Source: a virus. From it: DNA of 36,785 nucleotides. The position numbers and the translations under genes were made by a program. The DNA lies in IMG/VR virus record IMGVR_UViG_3300020119_000228, positions 1 to 36,785 of that record. One strand, 5' to 3'. The notes under the pieces were generated by a model. That model was not told the origin of the DNA. It searched no databases and saw nothing but the letters and a program-made list of their open reading frames with translations. Numbering within the stretch: the first letter of the stretch is position 1; each line of letters starts with the position of its first letter. Positions 10,270-25,887 of this stretch are shown one piece after another.

Positions 10270-10740
10270 TCATTCTGTAACCAATTTATCAATTAACTTC
10301 TCAAACAGGCTGTCGCTTGCGCCTTTTTGCTCTTCAGCATGACTACCATATTGCTTTGGCAATAACTTTGAAGCAAGCCATTTTCGTGTGTCAATACGAA
10401 GGCGCGAGCGTGCAATGAACTCAACATTACAAACCTCTTCTCCATCTTGGTCGCATTTAGCATCTTCTGATGTGTCGTCAGCAATTTCAAGGCATTCTTC
10501 TGCTAATAAATCGGCCTGAAAGAGCTTAGCTTGCGCGTATTTGAGGGAAAATTCAGGGTGAGTCCAACGCCAAAGATTAACTGTAGACCTATCTGGCATA
10601 TCATCGTACATCTTGCATAGTATATTTAAACCAACAGTATGCGTAGCAGTTCTTTGACAAATGAGATTAGCCAACGTATCTGTATAAGTCGTTGGCCTTC
10701 CTCTTTTCTTAAGATCTTCTGGTCTTTTTTTAGCAGTCAC
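10270..10740 (-). CDS. Terminase small subunit
   Basis: 156-aa protein with an N-terminal helix-turn-helix region: KKRGRPTTYTDTLANLICQR, then DMPDRSTVNLWRWTHPEFS, the layout of phage terminase small subunits (homeodomain-like, residues about 12-65). It continues to LRIDTRKWLASKLLPKQYG (near 117-135), a signature of this family just before the C-terminal segment. It recognises the packaging site and feeds DNA to the large subunit. The start is GTG 10740, chosen because AAGGA lies at the right distance; no ATG fits. It lies 2.4 kb upstream of the large subunit, unusually distant. Confidence 0.85.
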   Translation of the reverse strand: MTAKKRPEDLKKRGRPTTYTDTLANLICQRTATHTVGLNILCKMYDDMPDRSTVNLWRWTHPEFSLKYAQAKLFQADLLAEECLEIADDTSEDAKCDQDGEEVCNVEFIARSRLRIDTRKWLASKLLPKQYGSHAEEQKGASDSLFEKLIDKLVTE

Positions 10741-10940: not shown

Positions 10941-10977
10941 AATTACTCCCTGTAATTAAGTTTTTGTTAGAAGTAGG

Positions 10978-11052
10978 TTGGGCGTGATGGATTCGAACCA
11001 CCTACCTTCAGATTGTGAGCCTGACGGGCTAGCCTTCATGCCCCGACGCCCA
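10978..11052 (-). tRNA. tRNA-Val (anticodon CAC)
   Basis: Complete 75-base cloverleaf on the minus strand: acceptor TGGGCGT/ACGCCCA (7 bp), D-stem GGGC/GCCC with loop ATGAAGGCTA, anticodon stem TCAGG/TCTGA (one G-T pair) with loop CTCACAA, variable AGGTA, T-arm GGTGG-TTCGAAT-CCATC, discriminator A. The anticodon CAC reads GTG. Oddities are a T-A first pair and C instead of the near-universal T at position 8. CCA is not encoded. It lies at the promoter-proximal end of the late strand. Confidence 0.85.
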
Positions 11053-11164: not shown

Positions 11165-11249
11165 TTATCACGATGGTTATGTTCTTTATGGAGAAAGACG
11201 CCCCTATACCCAAATAAATGCTTTTTGCTTTTCCATGTCGCATAAAAAG

Positions 11250-11277
11250 ATAGTAGCACAAAAGTTTGTAGATACAA
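11250..11277 (-). promoter_or_regulatory. Leftward promoter for tRNA-Val and late genes
   Basis: Minus-strand TTGTAT (11272-11277), a 16-base spacer and TACTAT (11250-11255). The -35 lies inside the operator-like palindrome TTGTAGATACAA (11266-11277), so a repressor bound there would block it. This is the only good leftward promoter seen upstream of the tRNA and terminase genes. Confidence 0.5.
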
Positions 11278-11308
11278 GAAAGATACAAGAAAAAGTTTGT
11301 AGTTACAA
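11266..11308. promoter_or_regulatory. Paired operator-like elements
   Basis: Two copies of a near-palindromic element, TTGTAGATACAA (11266-11277) and TTGTAGTTACAA (11297-11308), each preceded by AAAG and spaced 31 bases apart, about three helical turns. The half-site TTGTAGTTA recurs as an inverted pair at 15827-15849, so the same phage regulator, perhaps the Cro-like protein, may act at both control regions. Confidence 0.55.
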
Positions 11309-11338
11309 AAAAATAACAAAAAAGATATAATCTTTTTC

Positions 11339-11399: not shown

Positions 11400-11756
11400 A
11401 TGAACGACAAAGTAATAGACAATAGAGAAATAGATTTTGATCATTGGTTTTGGAGTGAAGAACCACATGAATGGTGCAAATCAAAACCAACAGAATCTCT
11501 GGAAACACTTACAGTAGAGCGTTTATCTGGAGAGGATTTGTATGTACATGTATCCTTAAATAAGTCTTTTGGCTTTGATCTTGAAATAGATGGCTGTGAC
11601 GGTGAGCCAATTATACGTCATATGGGACTAAATCCTTTAGCTGCTGATAGTTTGGCGCAATTTTGTAGTGCTTACCTGCAATCTTACAATCGATGCCTTA
11701 AACAACGCGAAAATGACTGCGATGAGCTATGGTGTAAAGTAAGGGGAAGAAAATGA
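11400..11756 (+). CDS. Hypothetical early protein
   Basis: 118-aa unrecognised soluble protein, first gene of the short rightward operon, with AAGGA before ATG 11400. The N-terminus is acidic and Trp-rich (FDHWFWSEEPHEW), the middle is predicted beta (LYVHVSLNKSFGFDLEI) and the C-terminus is helical with several Cys. It overlaps the next gene as ATGA. Confidence 0.7.
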   Translation: MNDKVIDNREIDFDHWFWSEEPHEWCKSKPTESLETLTVERLSGEDLYVHVSLNKSFGFDLEIDGCDGEPIIRHMGLNPLAADSLAQFCSAYLQSYNRCLKQRENDCDELWCKVRGRK

Positions 11757-12557: not shown

Positions 12558-12761
12558 TTATCCAGCAAACACAGTAACATTCTTGGCAACATATCCCTTA
12601 GGAGAAGAAGTAGATTCAAACTCCACCTTCTCACCTTCTTTCAAAGTCTTGTAACCATTTCTATTTATGTCTTTGAAATGAACAAAATAATCAGAGCCCT
12701 TTGAATCAATAAATCCATACCCTTTTTTCTCATTAAACCACTTAACTGTTCCGTGTTGCAT
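12558..12761 (-). CDS. CspA-family cold-shock protein
   Basis: 67-aa single cold-shock domain: [18 protein letters not shown] with RNP1 KGYGFI (13-18) and RNP2 YFVHF (25-29), ending YVAKNVTVF. It has the full length and all aromatic nucleic-acid-contact residues of CspA proteins. It binds single-stranded RNA/DNA and melts structure. AAGGA precedes ATG 12761. It is the last gene of the leftward early operon, after the replication initiator. It likely acts as an RNA chaperone or antiterminator for phage transcripts. Confidence 0.92.
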
Positions 12762-12882: not shown

Positions 12883-13086
12883 TTAAATCAAATTAACCAT
12901 ATCTTGCATGCCTGTTGACTTCCAAACACTTACATATAATTCCAGTATTTCTTCTGAAATTAGCCCCTCTAACATAGCTTTTTTATCTTCTTTGCTCAAT
13001 AGCTTAGTGGAAATTAAGCTTGGTGACACGCCTAGTTTAAATCCTATTTTTGAGAGGATTTTTTTGCATTCTTGTTCGCTACGCAT
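12883..13086 (-). CDS. Small protein coupled to the replication initiator
   Basis: 67-aa helical protein (MRSEQECKKILSKIGFKLG; SLISTKLLSKEDKKAMLEGL). ATG 13086 lies inside the last codons of the initiator gene (8-base overlap), so the two are translated together. In lambda the gene after O is the helicase loader P, but this protein is far too short and has no ATPase motif. It may be an adaptor; unknown. Confidence 0.65.
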   Translation of the reverse strand: MRSEQECKKILSKIGFKLGVSPSLISTKLLSKEDKKAMLEGLISEEILELYVSVWKSTGMQDMVNLI

Positions 13087-13936
13087 AAAGCTCCCTCACA
13101 CTTACAGGCTTACCTGAACCAAGTGATTTCTTGAGAGCACCAAGAGAATTCTTCCCGCTCTCAGAAATTATGTGTTTGATATTGTTCATCGATATGCGTT
13201 CTTGTTCATACTGCTTTTGTTTATGTTCTTGGCGAATGCGATCTTCTTCGGCTTGAGTTTTATCATTTCCCTTATATCCATATGGTTGGTTCCATTTACC
13301 TTCGCGAATCTTTTTGAGTGCTATGTTAATTTTTTTGTTTATTTCTTTCGGGTCTGATTCATTGCCGATATAAAATAATATTTGGTTTTGCAGCTCATCC
13401 TCAAGCACTATACTTTTATTTCCAATGGCTCTCAAAATATGGGTTTTTACTTCAACAGAAGAAGAAAGAACAGGAACAGTCTTTTGTTTTGTTTTATTAA
13501 TAATTCTTTTATTTATATTTATTCTTTTATTTATAGGTGCTTGAAAACCAGATTGTGGGAAACCCGTATTGTGGGTTTTTGATGACTTATCCACAGGAGA
13601 ATCACCACAATACGGGTTTTCCGTATTCTGGGTTTTTCTCCTCAAAATTGTCTGCCATTCTATAATTCTTCCTTCATCATCTCTCACAGAAGTAACTTCT
13701 AAAAGGCCAATATTTTTTAGATATTTAAAGCATGTATCAATATGCTCTCTGCCGCATTCAAAATGATTCTGAAGATGTTTTTTGCAAATGATAAATCCGG
13801 AGGGTTTGGAAGCTAAGTAGCAATACACACCAAGTGCACCAGTGTGTTTTATTTGGCAGATTGTTTCGTTTATGATTGTGGTAAAGCCATTTTCTTCATG
13901 CAATAAAGTATTTTTTGTATTTTTTTCAATACTCAT
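13079..13936 (-). CDS. Lambda-O-like replication initiator
   Basis: 285-aa protein. Residues about 20-95 form a winged helix of the phage replication-protein type: TGALGVYCYLASKPSGFIIC, then KHLQNHFECGREHIDTCFKYLKNIGLLEV. Residues 96-150 are low-complexity, with repeats rich in N, P and G and then NKRIN repeats; this stretch is encoded by DNA that looks like an origin (13503-13632). The C-terminal half has a helical NQILFYIGNESDPKEINKKI region and a Q/E/K-rich coiled coil, presumably for partner contact. This is the plan of lambda O, which binds iterons inside its own gene. AAAGGA precedes ATG 13936. It belongs to the leftward early operon begun by the Cro-like gene. No sequence match to a named initiator is claimed. 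Confidence 0.7.
   Translation of the reverse strand: MSIEKNTKNTLLHEENGFTTIINETICQIKHTGALGVYCYLASKPSGFIICKKHLQNHFECGREHIDTCFKYLKNIGLLEVTSVRDDEGRIIEWQTILRRKTQNTENPYCGDSPVDKSSKTHNTGFPQSGFQAPINKRININKRIINKTKQKTVPVLSSSVEVKTHILRAIGNKSIVLEDELQNQILFYIGNESDPKEINKKINIALKKIREGKWNQPYGYKGNDKTQAEEDRIRQEHKQKQYEQERISMNNIKHIISESGKNSLGALKKSLGSGKPVSVRELYA
13503..13632. other. Predicted replication origin inside the initiator gene
   Basis: Three parts lie side by side. Iteron-like 12-base elements of the form CC..ATT.TGGG occur at 13548-13559, 13564-13575 and 13621-13632, with an inverted copy at 13605-13616; two of these form a perfect 15-base inverted repeat (13560-13574 and 13605-13619). Between them lies a perfect consensus DnaA box TTATCCACA (13587-13595). 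Next to them is an AT-rich stretch (13486-13540) with a 15-base direct repeat (13503-13517, 13521-13535), a likely unwinding element. This is the layout of lambda ori. Confidence 0.65.
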
Positions 13937-15291: not shown

Positions 15292-15567
15292 TTAATTTTC
15301 CTTGTTTTTAAAAATATCAATCAATTCCTTATGTTCATTAATAGTTTCTGCAATGGTCTCATAAACACGCGATATAAATTGCATAGCTTCTTTTTTATTA
15401 TCTAAACTTGCGCAACATGATACAAGTGTATTCACTGCCAAATTGGTCATTAAATAAAATACTTGATTACCATTCATGCCATAATTTTTAACATAATCAT
15501 CTTTTATTGATTCCATTTTTTTTAGGAATTCTTCGATTATTTCTTCCTTATTTTCACTATAGTTCAT
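15292..15567 (-). CDS. Hypothetical helical early protein
   Basis: 91-aa all-helical protein. LAVNTLVSCCASLDNKKEAM followed by a FISRVYETIAETI helix resembles, in layout, the C-terminal half of the 101-aa protein at 19049 on the other arm. The start overlaps the Cro-like stop as ATGA, so it is co-translated with the regulator. Confidence 0.65.
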   Translation of the reverse strand: MNYSENKEEIIEEFLKKMESIKDDYVKNYGMNGNQVFYLMTNLAVNTLVSCCASLDNKKEAMQFISRVYETIAETINEHKELIDIFKNKEN

Positions 15568-15761
15568 ACATTGCCCTTATTTTCTTCCTTATTCCAATAA
15601 GCCTTAAGCTCTCCGTTAGTTAATTGTTCTAACCTTTTTTGTGAACATGGAGGGATATATCCAATATTTTTCCACCTTGTAAGAGTATTTTTCCCCATTC
15701 CAGTTTTTTTCTGAAAATTACCATAAGTCCCAAAGTATTTTTTTACATCTTCGAAATTCAT
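15564..15761 (-). CDS. Cro-like repressor
   Basis: 65-aa protein: FEDVKKYFGTYGNFQKKTG, then MGKNTLTRWKNIGYIPPCSQ, then RLEQLTNGELKA. The order K..V...FGT....K..G......W...IP....RLE.LT.G.LK is that of P22 Cro and related small lambda-repressor-fold proteins, with the helix-turn-helix near residues 13-33. It is the first gene of the leftward operon, transcribed divergently from the recombination operon, exactly where a Cro or repressor is expected. The operators are probably the palindromes at 15808-15849. No CI-type partner is found. Confidence 0.8.
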   Translation of the reverse strand: MNFEDVKKYFGTYGNFQKKTGMGKNTLTRWKNIGYIPPCSQKRLEQLTNGELKAYWNKEENKGNV

Positions 15762-15792: not shown

Positions 15793-15821
15793 AATATAAT
15801 CTTTTTATTGACATATGTCAA
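15793..15821 (-). promoter_or_regulatory. Leftward early promoter (Cro/replication arm)
   Basis: Minus-strand TTGACA (15816-15821), 17-base spacer, TATATT (15793-15798), near-consensus. Its -35 is the right half of the palindrome TTGACATATGTCAA (15808-15821). Confidence 0.75.
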
Positions 15822-15836
15822 GAAAATAACTACAAT
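15808..15836 (+). promoter_or_regulatory. Rightward early promoter (recombination arm)
   Basis: TTGACA (15808-15813), 17-base spacer, TACAAT (15831-15836). Its -35 is the left half of the palindrome TTGACATATGTCAA, whose other half is the -35 of the divergent leftward promoter, so two polymerases cannot bind at once. Confidence 0.8.
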
Positions 15837-23093: not shown

Positions 23094-24005
23094 TTAAATG
23101 TACTCTGTAATTATTACGATACCACTTCCTCCTGTACCACCATTTGTAAGTGCACCAATAACGCCTTGAATTGCAGAACCTGAACCACCAGCACCTGTAT
23201 TTGCTGGAGCTGCGTTTCCTGATTGATTAGTCCCTGTAACTACTAATGCTAATCCTCCTCCTCCTAGTCTTGTCGATCCACCGGTACCACTTATTGATGT
23301 GGTAGCCCCAAATACAATTGCATATGATCCAGGAGCTCCAGCACCATTAACGGAACCTCCAGAACCAGGTGTTGCACCAGCACCACCTACGGCATTTCCC
23401 CAACCTGCTATAGCTGATACCATGGCACCGCCTCCCTGGCCCCCATTTACAGTAAGTAACGATCCTACAGTTGTTGTTCCTCCAGGATTGCCTGGGCTTC
23501 CACTTACTGTGCTTCCTCCGGCTCCAATTGTAATTATTTGTGAATCAGCAATTTGTTCTGCTGAATATAGACCTCTACCATAACCCCCTGATCCGCCACC
23601 ACCACCAGCCCATCCAGTCCCAGCAGCTGCAAACCCAGTGCTTCCACCTCCGCCTCCGCCTCCTAAGGCTTCAATCAAACAAAAATTCATATCTGGATTA
23701 GGAATATATGTTCCTGATGAGGTAAATACCCTCAATCCTATAACTACTGATGTTTCAGGAATTTGTTGATCAAATCTTTGTTCAGTTGCATTTCTAGTGA
23801 AGAATCCTTGACCGTCAGCATAGAATATATAAACACCATCTGTATTTTCCCATTCAAATTCCCCGTTTTGAAGAAGTTGTATGTTTTCATCTTGGGCTGT
23901 TAAATAACCACTTGTAGTTATTGCTACTAAATTATCAGTAGTAACAATCCTAATTATTCTTGGCTTTATTCCCCAATCGCTTGTAATATCGGTTATAGGC
24001 ATCAT
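23094..24005 (-). CDS. Glycine-rich tail/fibre protein, paralogue 1
   Basis: 303-aa protein in two parts. Residues 1-90 (MMPITDITSDWGIKPRIIRI...) form the N-terminal module shared by all four genes of the array, with TTDNLVAITTSGYLTAQ and FEWENTDGVYIFYADGQGFF. After FCLIEALGGGGGGG (near 108-121) comes a glycine-rich domain with many GG, GAGG and PGNPGG turns, ending IVIITEYI. Such glycine-rich C-terminal domains occur in phage receptor-binding proteins, where they form polyglycine-type sandwiches exposing variable loops. AAGGA precedes the start. Last of the array. Confidence 0.75.
   Translation of the reverse strand: MMPITDITSDWGIKPRIIRIVTTDNLVAITTSGYLTAQDENIQLLQNGEFEWENTDGVYIFYADGQGFFTRNATEQRFDQQIPETSVVIGLRVFTSSGTYIPNPDMNFCLIEALGGGGGGGSTGFAAAGTGWAGGGGGSGGYGRGLYSAEQIADSQIITIGAGGSTVSGSPGNPGGTTTVGSLLTVNGGQGGGAMVSAIAGWGNAVGGAGATPGSGGSVNGAGAPGSYAIVFGATTSISGTGGSTRLGGGGLALVVTGTNQSGNAAPANTGAGGSGSAIQGVIGALTNGGTGGSGIVIITEYI
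23850..23895. repeat. 46-bp exact repeat, copy 1
   Basis: Identical to 24812-24857, encoding DENIQLLQNGEFEW in two neighbouring paralogues that differ elsewhere. A sign of recent duplication or gene conversion. Confidence 0.85.
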
Positions 24006-24055
24006 TATTTCCTTATAATTAATTGTTTTAATTACATATCATTCATTGACATGTT

Positions 24056-24964
24056 CTAAATGTATTCAGTAATTAACACTACTCCTGAGCCGCCCGCACC
24101 ACCTAAAGTAGGCGCTCCAGTAACACCTTGTATTGCTGATCCTCCTCCTCCTGATCCAGTGTTATCTTGAGCAGGAGATCCAATGTTGTTTGATCCTATA
24201 GCCACAAGTGAGTTTCCTGATCCTCCTAACCTTGTTGCTCCACCAGCTCCACTAATAGATGCTGAAACACCAACATAAAATGAATTAAATCCTGGAGCCC
24301 CTCTAGAATTAACCGCTCCTCCAGTTCCAGCTGCACCTCCAGCTCCTCCTTGAGCTCCATTAAAACCTGCAGTAGCTACTCCTGTTGATAATCCTCCTAA
24401 TCCTCCATTGGCAACTAACAAAGTTCCAACGCTTGTTGTTCCTCCTGGATTACCATCGTCATTTGCTACTGGAGTACCACCTGCTCCAATTGTAACTACT
24501 TGTGATGTTCCAATCTGAGCAGCTGTATATATTCCTCTACCATAGCTACCCGCTCCACCGCCACCTCCAGCGTATCCAGTCCCAGCAGCTGCGGTGCTTG
24601 TTCCTCCTCCAGCTCCACCACCACCAATGGCTTCTATAATGCAAAAAGTCATACCTGGTGTAGGTATATAATTACCAGAAGCAGTTATTGTCCGTTGTGC
24701 AACTACAACGGTTTCAGTTGGTATTTCTACGTCAAATCTTTGTTCTTCTGCATTATGAGTAAAGAATCCTTGTCCATCTGAATAGCTTATTAAAACTCCA
24801 TCTGTTGGAAACCATTCAAATTCCCCGTTTTGAAGAAGTTGTATGTTTTCATCTTGGTCAACTAAATAACCAGATGTGGTTATTGTGTTAAAATCATCTG
24901 TAGTAACAACACGAATTATTCTAGGATTTATTCCTTCATCAGTTGTTATGCTTAAAATAGCCAT
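24056..24964 (-). CDS. Glycine-rich tail/fibre protein, paralogue 2
   Basis: 302-aa paralogue of the previous gene: MAILSITTDEGINPRIIRV at the start, QDENIQLLQNGEFEWFPTDG in the N-terminal module, FCIIEAIGGGGAGGG at the domain junction and VVLITEYI at the end. The N-terminal module and the FCxIEAxGGGGxGGG junction are conserved while the glycine-rich loops differ, the pattern expected of a receptor-binding set under diversifying selection. AAGGAG precedes ATG 24964. Confidence 0.75.
   Translation of the reverse strand: MAILSITTDEGINPRIIRVVTTDDFNTITTSGYLVDQDENIQLLQNGEFEWFPTDGVLISYSDGQGFFTHNAEEQRFDVEIPTETVVVAQRTITASGNYIPTPGMTFCIIEAIGGGGAGGGTSTAAAGTGYAGGGGGAGSYGRGIYTAAQIGTSQVVTIGAGGTPVANDDGNPGGTTSVGTLLVANGGLGGLSTGVATAGFNGAQGGAGGAAGTGGAVNSRGAPGFNSFYVGVSASISGAGGATRLGGSGNSLVAIGSNNIGSPAQDNTGSGGGGSAIQGVTGAPTLGGAGGSGVVLITEYI
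24812..24857. repeat. 46-bp exact repeat, copy 2
   Basis: See 23850-23895; identical over 46 bases, within the N-terminal module of the second paralogue. Confidence 0.85.
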
Positions 24965-24975
24965 TTTTTATCTCC

Positions 24976-25887
24976 TTATAAAAATTCGGTTATTATTACT
25001 ATCCCAGCTGATCCATTTCCTCCAGCAGATGCAGAAAAATCTATATTTTGAAGTGCTGCTCCAGAACCGCCAGAACCTGTAGAAGGTCTTGCCGCTATCC
25101 CTGTTTCACTGCTAGAAGATGCAATAACGGAAGCCCCTCCTCCCCCTAAATTCGTAGATGCGCCTGCACCACTTATGGCAAATACATTACCAACTACTAA
25201 TGAAGCAAATCCTGAAGCTCCGCGACCATTAAATGAGCCACCCTCACCCTGCGGTCCTCCTCCTCCACCATTCGTTGACCCAAAATTGTTAATATTAGAG
25301 GACATAAAATTTCCTCCATTACCACCGAATGCAGTTAATAAATCACCAAAAAAACTAAGTCCTCCTGGATCTCCTGGAGCTCCTGTTCTTCCAGTACCAC
25401 CTAAACCAACGCCAACTAATTGAGATGAACCTATTTGTGACGCAGTGAATAAACCAATGCTATAAGCTCCTGCTCCTCCTCCTCCTGCAGCGCTTCCAAC
25501 TCCTAAAACTGTAGAAAATTGCGTACCACCTCCAGCTCCACCACCTCCATAAACTTCAATGAAACAAAAATTCATAGAGGGAGTGGGGATATATGTTCCT
25601 GGAGAAGTAAATACTTGTTGAGCAACAATAATTCCAGCTTGATCTATAGCTTCATCAAATCTTTGATCTGCTTCATTATGTGTAAAAAATCCTTGTCCAC
25701 CATTGTAAAATATATATACACTGTCAGTTGGAAGCCATTGAAACAAACCATTTTGAATTGCTTTTATATTTGATATTTGTGTCGTTAAATATCCTGTAGT
25801 CGTAATTGCAGTAAATGTATCAGTTGTAACTACTCGTACAATTCTTGGATCTATACCTTGATCTGTAGAAATATTTGTAATAGCCAT
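24976..25887 (-). CDS. Glycine-rich tail/fibre protein, paralogue 3
   Basis: 303-aa third member: MAITNISTDQGIDPRIVRV, the module ending GQGFFTHNEADQRFDEA, then FCFIEVYGGGGAGGG and a glycine/serine-rich C-terminus ending IVIITEFL. More diverged from the other two than they are from each other. AAGGA precedes the start; 11 bases separate it from the next gene. Confidence 0.75.
   Translation of the reverse strand: MAITNISTDQGIDPRIVRVVTTDTFTAITTTGYLTTQISNIKAIQNGLFQWLPTDSVYIFYNGGQGFFTHNEADQRFDEAIDQAGIIVAQQVFTSPGTYIPTPSMNFCFIEVYGGGGAGGGTQFSTVLGVGSAAGGGGAGAYSIGLFTASQIGSSQLVGVGLGGTGRTGAPGDPGGLSFFGDLLTAFGGNGGNFMSSNINNFGSTNGGGGGPQGEGGSFNGRGASGFASLVVGNVFAISGAGASTNLGGGGASVIASSSSETGIAARPSTGSGGSGAALQNIDFSASAGGNGSAGIVIITEFL

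What the first reader, a model, noticed from the sequence alone, without database searches (positions are those of the whole stretch)
13503..13632. Lambda-style replication origin embedded in the initiator gene
Four 12-base elements (three direct, one inverted), a perfect DnaA box TTATCCACA between them and an AT-rich tract with a 15-base direct repeat all lie inside codons about 100-145 of a winged-helix initiator, between its DNA-binding domain and C-terminal half. That is the layout of lambda O/ori, yet the protein is not recognisably O, and the DnaA box inside the iteron array is an extra feature suggesting joint use of phage initiator and host DnaA.
Basis: partly seen in the sequence, partly recalled or inferred. 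Interest (0 to 1): 0.75.

Follow-up and report, generated by a model that had tools for sequence, protein, structure and literature searches.

The report
Phage origin inside its initiator gene
This bacterial virus appears to carry its DNA-copying start site inside the gene for the protein that recognises it, as phage lambda does; it is a new variant of a known design, with protein and start site inherited as one swappable cassette and, in some relatives, an added binding site for the host's own initiator DnaA.

Summary
Gene 13936..13079 (minus strand) encodes a 285-aa protein: a winged-helix N-terminal domain, a disordered linker and a helical C-terminal half. The linker DNA holds four 11-12-bp dyads in two pairs of 16-bp pitch, a perfect DnaA box between the pairs (the only one in the genome), and the least stable 50-bp stretch of the genome, containing a 15-bp direct repeat. 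Sixteen further initiator genes from 14-15 distinct IMG/VR relatives carry the same 16-bp CC-N7-GG arrays, in all three codon frames. Codons are frozen in the linker (77% identical at conserved residues; 41% in the wHTH region). A motif built without the window ranks its four sites top in the 36.8-kb genome. Initiators beside the same downstream gene but with unrelated N-terminal domains carry unrelated repeats at this place, so DNA-binding domain and repeats move as one module. A replication origin of lambda-O / pSK41-Rep design is by far the best reading, though not shown experimentally. The protein matches no lambda O or RepA_N model. The DnaA box is facultative: perfect in 6 of 16 genes, clearly absent in 7, so a role for host DnaA is plausible but unproven. 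Verdict: real; new variant of a known kind.

The parts
13079..13936 (-). Initiator gene, 285 aa: wHTH N-terminal region (about residues 20-100), disordered linker (105-159), helical C-terminal half
   Evidence: ORF; AlphaFold2 pLDDT about 93-96 in 31-100, below 40 in most of 105-159; weak PHROG hits: DnaD-like helicase loader 1.6e-7, replication initiation protein 3.9e-5; Foldseek best PDB match primosomal DnaB 5wtn, E 7e-4
13621..13631 (-). Iteron 1, CCAGAATACGG (gene nt 306, codon frame 2)
13605..13615 (+). Iteron 2, inverted, CCACAATACGG on + strand (gene nt 322, frame 0)
   Evidence: 16 bp from iteron 1
13587..13595 (+). Perfect DnaA box TTATCCACA between the iteron pairs
   Evidence: perfect box in 6 of 16 linkers
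13564..13574 (-). Iteron 3, CCACAATACGG (gene nt 363, frame 2)
13548..13558 (-). Iteron 4, CCACAATCTGG (gene nt 379, frame 0)
   Evidence: 16 bp from iteron 3
13486..13535 (.). Putative DNA unwinding element: least stable 50-mer of the genome, with TATAAATAAAAGAAT twice (13535-13521 and 13517-13503)
   Evidence: nearest-neighbour scan; sequence; AATAAAAG-rich tract at the same place in most relatives
12883..13086 (-). 67-aa gene overlapping the initiator's end; conserved next to initiators even when their N-terminal domain differs; possible replication partner (inference)
   Evidence: no family hit
15564..15761 (-). Cro-like gene upstream of the initiator on the same strand (lambda-like order cro, then initiator with origin)
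   Evidence: Pfam P22_Cro 9.9e-5, below cut-off; phrog_409 7.3e-9; Cro homologue upstream of the initiator in L009, L015, L016, L032, L034, L035
15793..15821 (-). Promoter-like site TTGACA-17-TATATT that would transcribe cro and run through the origin; a divergent one lies at 15808-15836 (+)
   Evidence: consensus scan, 11 of 12 matches each; consensus only, total promoter-like hits in the region did not exceed shuffles

Best explanation
The segment is the replication origin of this circular 36.8-kb phage genome, placed inside the coding sequence of its own initiator. Proposed steps: (1) transcription from a PR-like promoter upstream of cro makes the initiator and passes through the origin (inferred); (2) its N-terminal winged-helix domain, probably as a dimer, binds each 11-bp imperfect palindrome CCASAWTMYGG, two pairs at 16-bp pitch (binding inferred; motif shown); (3) the assembled nucleoprotein opens the adjacent AT-rich tract (13486-13535) (inferred by analogy with lambda and pSK41); (4) the helical DnaD/DnaB-like C-terminal half, perhaps with the small protein encoded downstream, brings in the host replicative helicase or primase (inferred; no P- or DnaC-like gene was recognised among the genes tested). 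Host DnaA bound at the box between the pairs may help opening or helicase loading in this phage, but many relatives lack the box. The encoded peptide is only a flexible linker, which leaves its DNA free to act as the origin; wHTH and iterons stay in one cassette.
For: Four elements confirmed and top-ranked genome-wide by a motif built without the window. Sixteen related genes from 14-15 distinct relatives all carry CC-N7-GG-N5 16-bp arrays in the same linker: 41 pairs in 3.06 kb of linker against 0 in 11.0 kb of the rest of the same genes. Iterons fall in all three codon frames. Codon identity at conserved residues 77% in linker and 86% in the AT tract against 41% in the wHTH region and 45% in the C-terminal part; 44% expected in the linker from per-residue rates. 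Tandem iteron pairs occur nowhere else in five 35-40-kb relative contigs. The AT tract is the least stable 50-mer of the genome. Model: ordered wHTH, disordered linker, helical C-terminal half; best PDB match primosomal DnaB. Module swap: L034 and L035 carry the same downstream gene and C-terminal domains homologous to L030, L031 and L016, but unrelated N-terminal domains and unrelated linker repeats at 22-bp pitch. Precedents: lambda O (PMC5043065), Stx phage O (PMC7466680), pSK41 Rep and the pPR9 chimera in which N-terminal domain and ori were exchanged together (PMC5703833).
Against: No binding, replication or read-depth data. The iteron consensus was first seen in the window, although the motif excluding the window gives the same answer. 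The C-terminal assignment is weak (global TM about 0.26-0.29; PHROG E 1.6e-7). GC skew follows gene orientation and gives no independent support. L017-L019, L031 and L032 have diverged iteron cores. The DnaA box is not conserved across the family.
Confidence: 0.92

Rival explanations
1. The dyads are operator sites through which the wHTH protein controls transcription (autoregulation or a transcription road-block), not an origin.
For: A wHTH protein with dyad sites in its own gene fits an autoregulator; one terminator-like hairpin is scored at 13609-13627 on the + strand.
Against: Sites lie about 300 bp inside the gene, not at a promoter; the genome's least stable 50-mer adjoins them; an AT-rich AATAAAAG tract persists in most relatives and is codon-frozen; the swap pattern matches known origins (pPR9, lambdoid phages). 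The roles are not exclusive.
Confidence: 0.04
2. The repeats are by-products of a conserved peptide motif (QNTENPYCG and similar) needed by the protein.
For: QNTENPYCG is shared by several relatives.
Against: The same 11-mers are read in three codon frames; codon identity far exceeds the rate at the same amino acids in the wHTH region; synonymous recoding destroys the array; the peptide is predicted disordered.
Confidence: 0.01
3. Origin reading correct, but the DnaA box is fortuitous and host DnaA plays no direct role.
For: No perfect box in 10 of 16 genes, 7 of them without even a close variant. TTATCCACA shares CCACA with the iteron half-site, so the linker is biased towards such words; after conditioning on TCCACA the enrichment is modest (Fisher p = 0.024, sequences not independent).
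Against: Only perfect box in this genome, and in the origin; 6 of 16 perfect against 0.38 expected under synonymous recoding; found in different codon frames and both orientations, in four of the six cases between the first iteron pair and the next iteron.
Confidence: 0.45
4. The site serves another DNA transaction: partition site, recombination site or packaging (pac) site.
For: Iterated dyads are also found in partition and packaging sites; the head module is P22-like.
Against: No partition gene was recognised; P22-type pac sites lie in the small terminase gene (own knowledge), here at 10270-10740; the site segregates with the wHTH of the initiator, not with terminase.
Confidence: 0.02

Closest known systems
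Phage lambda O gene / ori-lambda and lambdoid (Stx) relatives
   Same: Iterons followed by an AT-rich tract in the middle of the initiator gene; Cro-like gene and PR-like promoter upstream on the same strand; four dyad iterons in this phage as in lambda (PMC5043065, PMC7466680)
   Different: Protein matches no Pfam or NCBIfam O model; 11-bp dyads at 16-bp pitch rather than 19-bp iterons; no P gene recognised, C-terminal half resembles DnaD/DnaB; DnaA box inside the array, whereas the lambda sites described lie downstream of promoter pO (PMC3985674)
Staphylococcal RepA_N plasmid initiators (pSK41 Rep) and pPR9-type hybrids
   Same: N-terminal wHTH binds four Rep boxes in the middle of rep; that DNA encodes a dispensable linker; C-terminal domain host-specific; structural similarity to DnaD; the pPR9 hybrid exchanged N-terminal domain plus origin for a phage-type HTH_36 domain (PMC5703833)
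   Different: No RepA_N match; phage, not plasmid; DnaA boxes have not been detected in staphylococcal plasmids (PMC5703833)
Iteron plasmids of Gram-negative bacteria (P1, pSC101, F, RK2)
   Same: Initiator iterons with DnaA boxes and an AT-rich opening region
   Different: Origin usually outside the rep gene (own knowledge); Rep_3-type initiator; this protein matches no Rep_3 model
Pfam HTH_36 (PF13730) phage replication proteins
   Same: 5 of 6 N-terminal domains match HTH_36 weakly (best 3.5e-4)
   Different: The window's own domain does not match HTH_36 at E 1, and full-length matches of relatives were below the curated cut-off

Membership tests
Origin embedded in initiator gene (lambda O / pSK41 Rep design) | Iterated initiator-type sites inside the initiator coding sequence | tested here: met
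Origin embedded in initiator gene (lambda O / pSK41 Rep design) | Adjacent AT-rich, easily melted tract | tested here: met
Origin embedded in initiator gene (lambda O / pSK41 Rep design) | DNA-level (synonymous) conservation of the sites | tested here: met
Origin embedded in initiator gene (lambda O / pSK41 Rep design) | Initiator N-terminal domain binds the sites | not testable with these tools
   Indirect only: domain and sites change together
Origin embedded in initiator gene (lambda O / pSK41 Rep design) | Segment supports replication | not testable with these tools
Lambda O protein family (Phage_rep_O) | Match to the family model | tested here: not met
   No hit in Pfam at E 0.5 or NCBIfam at E 0.05
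Lambda O protein family (Phage_rep_O) | P-type helicase-loader gene next to it | tested here: inconclusive
   The next gene is a 67-aa protein without family hits
RepA_N plasmid initiators | RepA_N domain (PF06970) | tested here: not met
HTH_36 (PF13730) | Match above curated cut-off | tested here: not met
   Some relatives match weakly, full-length scores below cut-off; the window protein does not match
DnaD/DnaB-type primosomal proteins | wHTH plus helical C-terminal domain of that fold | tested here: inconclusive
   phrog_186 E 1.6e-7; Foldseek 5wtn E 7e-4 but global TM about 0.26-0.29
DnaA-assisted iteron origin | Perfect DnaA box in the origin, conserved in relatives | tested here: inconclusive
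   Present here and in 5 other genes of 16; absent in others

The most novel reading that the evidence does not exclude
A family of phage initiators in which the DNA-binding domain and its 16-bp-pitch iterons form an exchangeable specificity cassette, and some lineages have independently added a DnaA box inside the iteron array, giving hybrid origins opened jointly by phage initiator and host DnaA without a separate loader gene.
Probability: 0.35. Interest if true: 0.55.

Novelty: new variant of a known kind. Interest (0 to 1): 0.42.

Why it matters
It predicts an exact, testable origin for a group of uncultured phages and a general way to find origins in phages with unrecognised initiators: look for codon-frozen, frame-independent dyads in the disordered linker of wHTH proteins. 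It shows DNA-binding domain and origin travelling together while the helicase-loading half is exchanged, which offers a natural series for studying protein-site co-evolution. The facultative DnaA box gives matched natural origins with and without it for asking what DnaA contributes.

Tried and rejected
Genome-contig scans with two alignments found no relative, so the bacterial host is unknown. Centring a genome-wide search on E. coli was not possible. The C-terminal half alone found no viral relative. The linker DNA has no match in INPHARED phages, and the downstream 67-aa gene has none there. Protein matches in named phages and plasmids are distant (about 25-38%); the Vibrio phage V039C homologue has no such array in the stretch inspected. 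PDB sequence searches found nothing meaningful. GC skew follows gene direction. An RNA hairpin or terminator reading was dropped because the second iteron pair is direct, not inverted. A structure job for the 67-aa protein did not finish.

Full report
Observation. The gene lies on the minus strand (13936..13079, 285 aa). Read on its coding strand, codons 102-130 contain CCAGAATACGG, an inverted CCGTATTGTGG, CCACAATACGG and CCACAATCTGG, starting at gene positions 306, 322, 363 and 379: two pairs with a 16-bp pitch. TTATCCACA, the only perfect DnaA box in 36,785 bp, lies between the pairs. Downstream, 13486-13535 is the least stable 50-mer in the genome by nearest-neighbour energy and includes both copies of TATAAATAAAAGAAT; in 60- and 80-bp windows it ranks lower. 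The record has a 127-bp direct terminal repeat, so it reads as a complete circle.

Chance and selection. Exact CCASAWTMYGG sites occur four times in the window, all here. With the protein held fixed and codons redrawn from the phage's usage, the mean is 0.31 exact sites against 4 observed, and none of 3000 recodings reached 4. A position weight matrix built from 12 relatives without the window ranks the four elements first to fourth in the whole genome.

Relatives. Searching IMG/VR with the winged-helix domain alone (no linker) gave 19 loci; with L014 and after removing near-duplicates, 17 genes including the window were compared (L017 and L018 are close to each other). All have CC-N7-GG units at 16-bp pitch in the segment just after the domain: 41 pairs in 3.06 kb of linker and 0 in 11.0 kb of the rest of the same genes. 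Because 16 is not a multiple of three, successive iterons fall in different codon frames; the same 11-mer is read as different peptides. At positions where two relatives share the amino acid, the codon is identical in 77% of cases in the linker and 86% in the AT tract, against 41% in the wHTH region and 45% in the C-terminal part; per-residue rates from the wHTH region predict 44% for the linker. Pairs are not independent, but the contrast is within the same genes. The tandem pair pattern occurs nowhere else in five relative contigs of 35-40 kb. In L031 and L032, where the putative recognition helix reads KGFDFIK instead of GR[DEK].I, iteron cores change to CCASAAGGTGG while pitch and CC/GG ends persist: a co-variation lead, not a test.

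Module swap. The 67-aa gene that follows the initiator is also found in L034 and L035/L036. Their initiators share C-terminal domains with members of this family (59% over 82 aa with L030, 45% over 143 aa with L031, 42% over 111 aa with L016), but their N-terminal domains are unrelated by sequence and so are the linker repeats: three ATTTCGGAAAATTCCGAAAT-type copies at 22-bp pitch in L034, TGACGTTA/CGTCA dyads in L035. DNA-binding domain and iterons are thus inherited together, as in plasmid pPR9, where the N-terminal domain and origin of pSK41 rep were replaced by a phage-type HTH_36 domain and the mini-replicon worked (PMC5703833).

Protein. AlphaFold2 gives a confident winged helix (residues about 20-100), a disordered stretch 105-159 (the origin-encoding part) and a helical C-terminal half. 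The best PDB match is primosomal DnaB of Geobacillus (E 7e-4, low global TM), the best PHROG a DnaD-like helicase loader (1.6e-7). No Pfam or NCBIfam O or RepA_N model matches; relatives match HTH_36 weakly. Upstream on the same strand is a Cro-like gene with a strong PR-like promoter consensus, the order seen in lambda.

DnaA box. Perfect boxes occur in 6 of 16 linkers against 0.38 expected by synonymous recoding. The iteron half-site CCACA is part of the box, so a stricter test conditions on TCCACA: 6 of 20 in linkers against 5 of 60 elsewhere, Fisher p = 0.024. The boxes appear in two orientations and different frames, and in four of six cases between the first iteron pair and the next iteron. 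Others (L016, L024, L025, L028, L030, L031, L032) have none; three more genes have one-mismatch versions. I read it as a facultative accessory, with about even odds that it is functional in this phage. In lambda, DnaA-protected sites lie downstream of pO (PMC3985674), so a box inside the array would be a difference.

What is shown and what is inferred. Shown: the elements, their non-random and DNA-level conservation, their linkage to the wHTH domain, and the AT-rich tract. Inferred: binding, melting, helicase loading, transcriptional activation and DnaA participation.

Noticed in passing
window 12883-13086 (-): 67-aa gene directly after the initiator, no known family, conserved next to initiators with different N-terminal domains (L003, L025, L031, L034, L035); possible replication partner.
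   Followed up: partly
window 11241-11330: AT-rich imperfect repeats (AAAGTTTGTAG, ATACAAGAAAG) upstream of the + strand gene 11400-11756; among the most self-similar stretches of the genome. Possibly an operator region.
   Followed up: no
window 10976-11052 (-): tRNA-Val (CAC) gene in the phage genome.
   Followed up: no
window 12558-12761 (-): Cold-shock-like gene (named from its sequence, not family-tested) just downstream of the replication operon; homologues also lie near the initiator in L015 and L016.
   Followed up: partly
window 23094-25887 (-): Three tandem genes of 302-303 aa, glycine-rich tail-fibre-like; the outer two are 52% identical.
   Followed up: partly
L009, L016, L032: Two Cro-like genes per locus.
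   Followed up: no
L034:2487-2558; L035:2224-2300: Further putative embedded origins with different iterons (22-bp pitch) in initiators with other N-terminal domains.
   Followed up: partly
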